Shown here: positions 43,595-58,790 of the stretch, in pieces
Position numbering within the stretch: position 1 is the first letter of the stretch
How the letters are laid out: every line of letters begins with the position of its first letter
NCBI RefSeq assembly: GCF_012427845.1
Contig: NZ_CP038498.1
Location: 4,340,001-4,404,000 of the forward strand
Reading direction: 5' to 3'
DNA length: 64,000 nt
From: Pectobacterium punjabense
Lineage (GTDB): Bacteria; Pseudomonadota; Gammaproteobacteria; Enterobacterales; Enterobacteriaceae
The notes under the pieces: model-generated
Database searches by the model: none
Told to the model about the DNA's origin: nothing
What the model saw: only the letters and a program-made list of their open reading frames with translations
Made by a program: the position numbers and the translations under genes

Positions 43595-43722
43595 GTGCGT
43601 CATTCTCGCCTGTGTCTTAGTCACATTTTATGCCGACTAAGAGGTGGTTTCGTGCGCGATAATACCGCAATTTCCATGCTACCCCGTAGCACGCGCCCGA
43701 CGCAGGGCGCTTGTATCTTTCT

Positions 43723-43913
43723 CATGTAGTGATTAGCTATCACTACATGAAACAGAGTGAGCTTCCGCAGGGCGCTAAGGCTATCAACCTTGCGATTGAG
43801 TTTAAGCCCTCTGTTTCACCTTTCACGCCAGCATTAACATTGAACGGTTACCTAGAGCACTGACTCTGAATGTACAAGCGGAACGGGCGTGACGGCTTCA
43901 GTGAAAGGGGGAC
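43723..43913 (+). ncRNA. IS110 bridge RNA (target- and donor-binding loops)
   Basis: The 5' stem-loop is CATGTAGTGAT (43723-43733)/ATCACTACATG (43739-43749). The target-binding loop is closed by AAACAGAG (43750-43757)/CTCTGTTT (43809-43816); its left guide CGCAGGGCGCT (43766-43776) equals the left flank 43701-43711, and its right guide GCGATTGAG (43792-43800) pairs with right flank CTCAGTCGC (44930-44938) with one G-U. The donor loop is closed by CCTTTCAC (43819-43826)/GTGAAAGG (43901-43908); ACGGTTAC (43844-43851) equals the right end, and TGTACAAG (43871-43878) complements left end CTTGTA. Layout and the AACCTtTGCG-like core resemble IS621. Confidence 0.85.
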
Positions 43914-43916
43914 ATT

Positions 43917-44905
43917 ATGTATTACATCGGCATTGATATCAGTAAACGTTTTATCGATGTGTGCTTATTGGTTGATGGCATTAAAGGTAAACGGAAGACG
44001 AAAGTTTTACCCAATGACCCCAACTCAGCACAGGCTTTGGCTCGATGGTTAATCCTGCAAAAATGTGACCCGAGTCAGGCTCATATCATCATGGAAGCCA
44101 CTGGGATTTATCACGAACACCTGGCCTATGGTCTCCATCAGGCTGGTATTCTGGTGTCCGTGATAAACCCGCATCGGGTGCGTGAATTCGCCAAAGGAAT
44201 GGGGATATTGACTAAAACGGATAAGGTTGATGCTTATGTGCTTGCCTGTTATGGCTGCCTGAAACAACCAGAAAACTGGCTCCCGCCTCTCAAGAAATAA
44301 GGAAACTCAAAGTCTTGTTACAGCACAGGGATAGTCTGCTGAATGATAAACAACGCATAGAAAATCGACTGAGCACGTTAAAATCCACCACGGCCCCAGA
44401 AGAAGTCCTGACCTCGCTGGAGTCGATTGAGCGAAATTTGAAGAATGAGCTGGCAAGGATTGAACGCCTGATAGCGGAGCATATAGATAAGCATCCTGGG
44501 CTAAAAAATGACCTGAAACTTCTGCAATCGATTGATGGAGTTGGAGAGCAAATCGGGTGGAATATGTTAGCCATCATCCGGGGCAATAACTTCAGGAGCG
44601 CGGAACAGGTGGCGGCGTACCTGGGAGTTATCCCGGTTGAACATCGTTCAGGCACCTCGGTGTGTGGCAGGGCCAGACTGTCGAAAATAGGTCCGCCGGG
44701 TATCCGGGCAAAACTGTATATGGGAGCCATAGCGGCTATCAGTTGGAACAGTCATGTGAAAGCCCTCTATGAAAGACTGCGGCTAAAAGGAAAAGCGAAG
44801 ATGGTGGCGATAGGGGCGGCGATGAGGAAACTGGTTCATCTGTGTTATGGCGTGCTGCATACGCAGCGGCCATATGACAAAAATTATGCGATGACGCCCC
44901 ATTAA
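43917..44905 (+). pseudogene. IS110-type transposase, interrupted by a -1 frameshift
   Basis: Frame 1 (43917-44300, 127 aa) has the RuvC-like DEDD half: YYIGIDISKRFIDVC (Asp), IIMEATGIYHEHLAYGL (Glu) and LTKTDKVDAYVLA (two Asp). It ends at a TAA (44298). Frame 2 carries on from about 44282 (SQEIRKLKVLLQHRDSLL...) to 44905 with the helical linker, the HhH-like LQSIDGVGEQIGWNML and the C-terminal Ser motif SVCGRARLSKIGPPGIRAKLY. A single missing base near 44280-44290 explains the break. No slippery run is evident there, so programmed shifting is unlikely, though sequencing error is possible. Confidence 0.85.
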
Positions 44906-44931
44906 AATGCTTGACCGGCAACACGGTTACT

Positions 44932-45110
44932 CAGTCGCCGCCGCCCTGCGAACCCAGGCTTCCGGCTAAATCATGCCGCTACGCGGTGCCATCGGCGTTC
45001 ATGATCACCCTTCGAGCCGCCAGTGACGCGTTCCATACGCGGCACTGGCTTTCGCGACGTCCTGTCGCTCACTCGGTGCTCATGATCACCGCTGCATAAT
45101 TTTTACGCCG
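44932..45110. repeat. REP-like palindromic region flanking the IS
   Basis: It holds the right arm of the rebuilt target palindrome (CGCCCTGCG, 44942-44950; the left arm CGCAGGGCG is at 43701-43709). A second hairpin GCCAGTG-a-CGCGT / ACGCG-g-CACTGGC lies at 45019-45049, and the direct repeat TCATGATCACC occurs at 44999-45009 and 45080-45090. No gene. Confidence 0.6.
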
Positions 45111-53451: not shown

Positions 53452-54342
53452 ATGAATGAATTGTTAGCTACAGAACCAAAGAGAAAATATTTGACAGGGT
53501 CTTCCAAATCTAACTTTGGTTATTTAGAGTCAACAGATGGAGAAATTGATTTCTCTATTGTAAAGAACATTATTCTTCATGGGCATCATAACGGTAACGT
53601 ACTTTATATTATCCGTAATTATGCTCATGAAGCAGTATGTAAGGCCATAGCTGATACATTTAATCGTGTAGTGGTAGAAAATGGAAGAAATCGTCCAGAT
53701 GATGGTTTCGTTTTGACCAACCAAGTCGGTGCCACGCAGTTCTCTCGTAATGGGCAGCAATATATTTACGAAGTCAATCGCGTGAATCAGTGCGTTGCCG
53801 ACCTCATGGCGATGACCGATGAACACGGCAATGAATCCCTCTTCCTTAATCGTACCTTAGAAGCGGAGTTTCTGAATCACGGTATCCATTTTGGCCCTGC
53901 ACGTTTTAAAAATGGTTATGCCTGCTTTGCAACCTTCCGCCGCTGGCTGGACAATGGTGTAATGTCACTGATGCCACACGAAGACATGGCGCAGGTTGAT
54001 TTTGCTCGTGAAGATGGTTTCGAGATCGCCAACACACAAACAGTTACAGCCTACAACGCCTGCCTTGAAGGCGCTAAAGGTGGCGGCCAGTTGAAGATTT
54101 GGAACCTGATACCTGATGACCAGTGCCGCAAAAGCTTGGGTGTTAGTCGAACGGGCTATCCTTACCCACCACATCTATTGGAAGGAATTGAGTCTCTCTC
54201 TGTACAGCTTAACGCAGGAGACCTCTACTTTATGAATGCCTGCCATCTACATGGTGTCAGCAGCGTCAGTGAAGGAAGTCGACTCACCGCAGGGCGCTTT
54301 ATTGGCAAATTGAGCGACCGTAAAGTCGTTTACTGGACGTAG
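53452..54342 (+). CDS. 2-oxoglutarate/Fe(II)-dependent oxygenase-like protein (cluster gene)
   Basis: A 296-residue predicted 2OG-Fe(II) oxygenase. Candidate iron ligands are H176-x-D178 (MPHEDMAQ) and H265 or H267 (NACHLHGVSS), with Arg 277 or 282 (GSRLTAGRF) to hold 2-oxoglutarate. The fold motif LSVQLNAGDLYFMNACHLHG is typical of the double-stranded beta-helix end. No signal peptide. First intact gene of an operon with a second oxygenase, SDR, ATP-grasp and exporter. Substrate unknown. Confidence 0.75.
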   Translation: MNELLATEPKRKYLTGSSKSNFGYLESTDGEIDFSIVKNIILHGHHNGNVLYIIRNYAHEAVCKAIADTFNRVVVENGRNRPDDGFVLTNQVGATQFSRNGQQYIYEVNRVNQCVADLMAMTDEHGNESLFLNRTLEAEFLNHGIHFGPARFKNGYACFATFRRWLDNGVMSLMPHEDMAQVDFAREDGFEIANTQTVTAYNACLEGAKGGGQLKIWNLIPDDQCRKSLGVSRTGYPYPPHLLEGIESLSVQLNAGDLYFMNACHLHGVSSVSEGSRLTAGRFIGKLSDRKVVYWT

Positions 54343-58552: not shown

Positions 58553-58580
58553 AAAAAAAAAGCCAGCACCCGAGCTGGCT
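58553..58580 (-). terminator. glpABC terminator
   Basis: AGCCAGC / GCTGGCT stem with a 6-nt loop; on the minus strand it ends in eight or more T. The remaining 58465-58790 spacer has no gene; a Fur-box-like stretch lies at about 58685-58705. Confidence 0.85.
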
Positions 58581-58790
58581 AAATAATACTGGAAGCAATG
58601 TGAGCAATGTCGTGCCTTCACAGGGAAACCGGCTCGTCATCAACACCACTAACACAGGCATATGACACCGTTCCCCGGAACGCACAGCAATAATAATCAT
58701 TATCATTCGCAGTTGTAAAGTGCTTTTTGCGATAAATTCTTATTCTCAATACGGACTGAGGAACAGCCCGTTTTGCTCCCCTGCTGTTTG

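What the first reader, a model, noticed from the sequence alone, without database searches (positions are those of the whole stretch)
43710..44931. IS110 element with a readable bridge RNA: all four guide halves match its own flanks and ends
The 5' non-coding region (43723-43913) folds into a stem-loop plus two internal-loop hairpins like the IS621 bridge RNA. Read by eye: (1) left target guide CGCAGGGCGCT equals the left flank 43701-43711; (2) right target guide GCGATTGAG pairs with right flank CTCAGTCGC at 44930-44938 with one G-U; (3) left donor guide ACGGTTAC equals the right end 44923-44930; (4) right donor guide TGTACAAG complements left end CTTGTA. The CT core and CTTGTAT left end are as I recall for IS621. 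This fixes the exact boundaries of an element that has no inverted repeats and records its native target in its RNA.
Basis: partly seen in the sequence, partly recalled or inferred. Interest (0 to 1): 0.9.

Follow-up and report, generated by a model that had tools for sequence, protein, structure and literature searches.

The report
Bridge-RNA-guided IS110 insertion element
A small jumping gene in a soft-rot bacterium appears to carry an RNA whose two loops spell out where it lands and what it carries; it looks like the well-studied element IS621 and is a good new example of a known kind rather than a new mechanism.

Summary
Window 43710-44931 is an IS110-group element (1218 bp between two CT cores). 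The genome has two more copies with flanks of the same type. Six of six orthologous sites that I read in other species are empty with one CT, which fixes the boundaries. A covariance model built from 15 elements of other genera finds the bridge RNA at 43716-43880, E 5e-27, the only hit in the window. The structure covaries: 25 of 28 pairs changed on both sides. Left guides follow their own flanks across 26 distinct elements (0 of 20000 permutations; right guides, weaker, 23 of 20000). Correction: the right donor guide is 43870-43878 and pairs discontiguously, as in IS621. Additions: a -35/-10 pair formed only at the circle junction, and a dispersed palindromic repeat as target. The window copy's recombinase is frameshifted; the other two copies have a 329-aa frame. 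New member of a known kind. Oddity: one P. aroidearum copy sits in a site that fits the window element's left guide better than its own.

The parts
43710..44931 (+). whole IS110-group element counted with both CT cores (43710-43711 and 44930-44931); 1218 bp between the cores, 1220 with one core
   Evidence: three copies with identical ends; six empty orthologous sites
43701..43711 (+). left target (LT) with CT core at its end
   Evidence: identical to LTG 11/11; single CT in empty sites
44930..44938 (+). right target (RT) with CT core at its start
   Evidence: pairs with RTG, 8 Watson-Crick + 1 G-U
43714..43719 (+). -10-like TATCTT, proposed to act only at the circle junction
   Evidence: 17-nt spacing from TTGACC across the joined RE|LE junction; sequence match only
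44911..44916 (+). -35-like TTGACC in the right end
   Evidence: sequence match only
43716..43880 (+). bridge RNA core (5' stem-loop, target loop, donor loop)
   Evidence: cmsearch 104.6 bits, E 5.4e-27, only hit in the window; covariation
43722..43750 (+). 5' stem-loop
   Evidence: z -5.1; 7 of 8 pairs with changes on both sides
43766..43776 (+). left target guide (LTG)
43792..43800 (+). right target guide (RTG)
43844..43851 (+). left donor guide (LDG)
   Evidence: equals right end 44923-44930
43870..43878 (+). right donor guide (RDG), discontiguous AT[GT]ACAAG
   Evidence: pairs with CTTGTAT at 43710-43716; same pattern as described for IS621 (passage)
43917..44300 (+). 5' piece of the recombinase gene (127 aa, RuvC-like DEDD domain)
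   Evidence: PF01548, E 2.4e-19; frameshift near codon 124 relative to the two other copies
44315..44905 (+). 3' piece of the recombinase gene (Tnp domain with the conserved serine)
   Evidence: PF02371, E 1.8e-22

Best explanation
This is an IS110-group insertion sequence of the IS621 kind. Excision joins the right end to the left end around one CT, which brings together a -35 and a -10 box and drives a bridge RNA from the left end. The RNA binds the DEDD/serine recombinase. Its first loop pairs with the target (left guide to the bottom strand, right guide to the top strand) and its second loop pairs with the circle junction. The recombinase then joins the two at the CT core. The guides of this element address the loop of a dispersed palindromic repeat, so copies land in repeats. 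The window copy has lost a full-length recombinase by a frameshift; it could move only with protein from the two other copies. Shown here: ends, empty site, other copies, guide-flank matches, RNA structure, conserved catalytic residues. Inferred from IS621: circle, transcription, protein binding and strand exchange.
For: Three copies with guide-matching flanks. Six of six orthologous sites read are empty with one CT. Covariance model built without any element of this genus hits the window once at E 5.4e-27. 25 of 28 pairs changed on both sides, 0 of 500 shuffles as good. Left guides fit own flanks in 26 distinct elements, 208 against a permuted mean of 163.4, 0 of 20000; right guides 185 against 173.8, 23 of 20000. 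The protein of the third copy matches IS621 (8wt6) and ISCro4 (9t56) at E 3.4e-51 and 2.4e-51, with IS621 D11, E60, D102, D105, S241 aligned to D7, E60, D102, D105, S245. NCBIfam NF033542 'IS110 family RNA-guided transposase', 210 bits against a cut-off of 140. Junction TTGACC-17-TATCTT. No inverted repeat joins the two ends.
Against: No expression, circle or recombination data. The donor loop does not fold better than shuffles by itself. The right-guide match alone is weak; in many distant relatives the right guide is no better than chance, and within the genus the right guides of the two main types do not tell the sites apart. One P. aroidearum copy fits its own left guide poorly. G007, with a third guide, matches 7 of 9 on each side.
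Confidence: 0.95

Rival explanations
1. The guide-flank matches are coincidence, or the leader merely carries a copy of flanking DNA picked up by chance; target choice is by protein only.
For: The right-guide match alone is reached by 297 of 20000 shuffles, and a floating-guide scan finds 18 other CT sites in the window.
Against: Left, right and donor matches together are reached by 0 of 20000 shuffles; left guides follow flanks across 26 distinct elements; within the genus, elements with another left guide (G002, G024) sit in another subfamily of the repeat in 4 of 5 cases.
Confidence: 0.02
2. It is an IS1111-subgroup element, with its RNA in a long right end and with subterminal inverted repeats.
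For: Same wider family and same RNA-guided principle (PMC11187229, abstract start in a search listing; passage of PMC11208160).
Against: The RNA is in the 205-nt left end upstream of the gene, and only 24 bp lie between the stop codon (ends 44905) and the right core (44930). The model of left ends fits end to end. None of nine inverted pairs found joins the two ends.
Confidence: 0.01
3. The RNA is really there but the window copy is a dead relic whose guides no longer matter.
For: Its recombinase gene is frameshifted.
Against: Its left end is identical to that of both copies with an open 329-aa frame, so it could still supply a guide or be moved in trans. This rival concerns activity, not identity.
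Confidence: 0.3

Closest known systems
IS621 (E. coli; bridge RNA, PMC11208160 and PMC11208158, passages; PDB 8wt6)
   Same: Layout (long left end with RNA, short right end), CT cores, 5' stem-loop plus target and donor loops, discontiguous right donor guide, junction -35/-10, catalytic residues, insertion in a palindromic extragenic repeat
   Different: Recombinase 121 of 313 aligned residues identical, 39%; different guides, aimed at a Pectobacterium repeat; right target starts CTCA (natural IS621 target ends CTAC)
ISCro4 (PDB 9t56)
   Same: IS110-group recombinase, E 2.4e-51 over query residues 1-322
   Different: Its bridge RNA was not compared here
IS110 elements of P. aroidearum L6, Yersinia thracica and E. 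coli (one plasmid, one truncated chromosomal copy)
   Same: The bridge RNA model fits P. aroidearum and E. coli copies at 97.8 to 99.3 bits; Yersinia was in the training set
   Different: DNA 84% (P. aroidearum), protein 69% (Yersinia) and 56% (E. coli plasmid); other left guides in P. aroidearum and Yersinia. In the plasmid collection the best listed match was 56.8%

Membership tests
IS110 family, IS110 group (IS621-like) | N-terminal RuvC-like DEDD domain (PF01548) and C-terminal PF02371 domain with conserved serine | tested here: met
   in the window copy split by a frameshift, in the other two copies one 329-aa frame
IS110 family, IS110 group (IS621-like) | CT core at both ends, one CT in the empty site, no long terminal inverted repeats | tested here: met
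   nine inverted pairs found, none between the ends
IS110 family, IS110 group (IS621-like) | long left end encoding a bridge RNA with 5' stem-loop, target loop and donor loop | tested here: met
   the donor-loop fold is weak by energy
IS110 family, IS110 group (IS621-like) | target guides complementary to left target bottom strand and right target top strand, covarying among relatives | tested here: met
   right side much weaker than left
[quoted passage not shown]
   left donor guide 8/8, right donor guide 7 pairs with 2 nt skipped
IS110 family, IS110 group (IS621-like) | sigma70-like promoter reconstituted only in the circle | tested here: met
   sequence only: TTGACC-17-TATCTT; no transcription data
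IS110 family, IS110 group (IS621-like) | circular intermediate and RNA-programmed recombination | not testable with these tools
   needs RNA and recombination experiments
IS1111 group | short left end, long right end, long subterminal inverted repeats | tested here: not met
   right end 24 bp from stop to core, RNA in left end, no inverted repeat between the ends

The most novel reading that the evidence does not exclude
Bridge RNAs of sibling elements may work on each other's circles. In P. aroidearum one copy (L019) sits at the exact site that a copy of the window's element occupies in the window's genome. Flanks are 93% and 91% identical, and 12 of 25 genomes show an uninterrupted repeat there. 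The P. aroidearum element is only 83.5% identical, and its own left guide pairs 7 of 11 positions with this site while the window-type guide pairs 11 of 11, wobbles included. Both types have the same donor-guide letters and the same end letters, so a window-type RNA could have sent the other element's circle there. No window-type element was found in that genome, so it would have to be lost; mismatch tolerance, or replacement of an older copy by homologous recombination, is not excluded.
Probability: 0.15. Interest if true: 0.55.

Novelty: new member of a known kind. Interest (0 to 1): 0.3.

Why it matters
It shows that bridge-RNA anatomy can be read nearly correctly from raw sequence, and it gives a natural IS621-like system at 39% recombinase identity with defined guides, native target, empty sites and copies with an open frame. 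The genus offers a natural experiment in guide-target matching: two main guide types, one repeat family with two subfamilies, and one site used by both.

Tried and rejected
Rfam at gathering cut-off found nothing at the element (only RyhB elsewhere), and a lax search of the target repeat found no RNA family. Megablast against 5426 E. coli genomes found matches in 178 but none covering 80% of the element; tblastn in the plasmid collection found 2708 records, the listed best at 56.8% identity. Weaker NCBIfam matches below cut-off (NF051857, TIGR-Tas NF052498) were not followed. A floating-guide control in the window had no power and is not used as evidence. Two more divergent kinds of RNA-model hit in the genus, G013 (1) and G014 (4), were looked at: in the four G014 loci my left-end motif was not found, and in G013 the one motif found does not lie where a left end of the model hit should start, so their guides were not read. 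Guide test: I gave 32 of the 80 loci plus 10 genus loci; 38 of these 42 had a readable left end (not L054, L055, L059, L060), 34 of 38 had both flanks (dropped: L032, L040, L041, L042), and 26 were distinct by target loop. Loci where the own flank is no better than others are kept in the counts (for example L034, L046, L063). Literature: the full-text search 'IS110 + Pectobacterium' listed 10 papers (titles and abstract starts seen, one read in passages, PMC11092175), and with 'bridge RNA' added 0. So I saw no report of this element's RNA in the held library; ISfinder could not be consulted and the element may already have a name. Searches on IS621 + REP and Pectobacterium + repeats were seen as listings only. 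PMC11208160 and PMC11208158 were read in passages; PMC11187229 only in a listing.

Full report
What is there. Window 43710-44931 holds an element of 1218 bp between two CT dinucleotides. It sits between a gene I recognise by recall as yhgN (MarC family) and a gluconate transporter gene; no call named them. The genome belongs to Pectobacterium by inference: four matching loci of genome G024 coincide in contig length and position with P. aroidearum L6 NZ_CP065044.1, and G024 is in the same genus as the window.

Boundaries. The genome holds two further copies whose ends are identical to those of the window copy and whose flanks are of the same type. At the window's site, six of the 24 other genus genomes gave a full or nearly full match to the left flank; all six read straight through the target with one CT and no element. 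The other 18 were not read at this site. This fixes the insertion to a single CT position. None of nine inverted pairs in the element joins its two ends.

Guides. The left target guide matches 11 of 11, the right target guide 9 of 9 with one G-U, and the left donor guide 8 of 8. The right donor guide was slightly misread: it is nine nucleotides, 43870-43878, that pair with seven donor bases with two skipped, which is the pattern reported for IS621 (passage in PMC11208160). For the third copy the left flank differs by one base, which leaves a wobble, and the right flank pairs perfectly.

Chance. Shuffled left ends reach the left match in 3, the right match in 297, the left donor match in 44, and all three in 0 of 20000 cases. 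With guide positions held fixed, the native junctions score 20 of 20 and the best of 6536 CT sites in the window 18 of 20. In 34 loci with both flanks (26 distinct), from this and other genera, left guides match their own flanks far better than permuted ones (208 against a mean of 163.4, 0 of 20000); right guides do so weakly (185 against 173.8, 23 of 20000). Sixteen of 34 loci have 9 of 9 on the left, four of these being the window type (three copies in this genome and G018).

RNA. Alignment of 20 left ends gives a 5' stem-loop, a target loop with an apical stem, and a donor-loop apical stem: 93.2% of cells paired, 25 of 28 pairs changed on both sides, 0 of 500 shuffles as good, slid controls 35 to 45% paired. 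A model built from 15 left ends of other genera has one hit in the window at E up to 10: 43716-43880, 104.6 bits, E 5.4e-27. In 25 genus genomes it finds 15 hits in 7 genomes. Against: the donor loop alone does not fold better than shuffles, and the minimum-energy fold pairs part of the left guide with a stretch that reaches into the right guide. The outer donor stem (CCTTTCAC with GTGAAAGG) can be read in the Pectobacterium and Yersinia rows but is not in the wider consensus.

Promoter. Joining right end to left end gives TTGACC-17-TATCTT. Of 23 copies examined, 13 (8 distinct elements) have TTGAC plus A, C or T at 17 nt from TATCTT, and the other ten, more distant ones do not. In the integrated element the two boxes lie about 1.2 kb apart. 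That excision builds the promoter is known for IS621 (passage) and inferred here.

Recombinase. Copies two and three have an open frame of 329 aa; the window copy has a frameshift near codon 124, which separates the RuvC-like part from the Tnp part. The protein of copy three aligns with IS621 at 121 of 313 residues identical and keeps the DEDD and serine positions.

Target. The right part of the left flank belongs to a dispersed repeat: in 25 of 25 genus genomes the listing shows matches to it (10 to 30 matches per genome for the whole query, gene part included, candidates capped). The 21-mer around the CT occurs 1 to 10 times per genome in 25 of 25, with the reversed control at 0. In the window's genome one such 21-mer is empty and three sites of this type are filled; a shorter 16-mer has two exact empty sites, and 12 sites with up to 2 mismatches against 5 in its reversed control. 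The CT lies in the loop of a palindrome (CAGGGCG ... CGCCCTG, read), much as IS621 uses REP elements (passage).

Oddity. The third copy's site is orthologous to a P. aroidearum insertion (flanks 92.8% and 91.1% identical over 1501 and 1323 bases). Of 25 genomes, 2 are occupied, 12 show an uninterrupted repeat (three of them of the other subfamily) and 11 show no repeat in the stretch printed. The two elements are 83.5% identical, so two separate insertions at one nucleotide are likely. The P. aroidearum copy pairs its own left guide at 7 of 11 positions but would pair the window-type guide at 11 of 11; the other eight of nine sites scored fit their own left guide better, while right guides do not tell the sites apart.

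Verdict. The element is a new member of the IS110 group with an IS621-type bridge RNA. The mechanism is established for IS621 and inferred here.

Noticed in passing
L007 and L019 (G000 4200186-4201410; G024, P. aroidearum, 553816-555045): Two element lineages (83.5% identical) occupy the same nucleotide of an orthologous repeat in two species, and the P. aroidearum one fits the other's left guide better than its own.
   Followed up: partly
window about 43610-43711 and 44930-45017; L136-L142, L145, L146: A dispersed repeat of roughly 100 bp or more, with palindromes, with matches in 25 of 25 Pectobacterium genomes examined; no Rfam match. Its ends, origin and function were not studied.
   Followed up: partly
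window 54288-54298 (+): Another exact copy of the 11-nt left target outside the element, with 7 of 9 right-target fit.
   Followed up: no
L179 (G013) and L180, L183, L186, L188 (G014): More divergent bridge-RNA model hits (67.7 and 56.3 bits), four copies in G014, suggesting further IS110-group elements in the genus; guides not read.
   Followed up: partly
window 58554-58619 (-): RyhB small RNA, 88.9 bits.
   Followed up: no
L046 (Halomonas beimenensis): An element copy whose left flank looks like a piece of another copy of the same element (end of its left end plus start of its gene); its left target fits its guide only 5 of 9.
   Followed up: no
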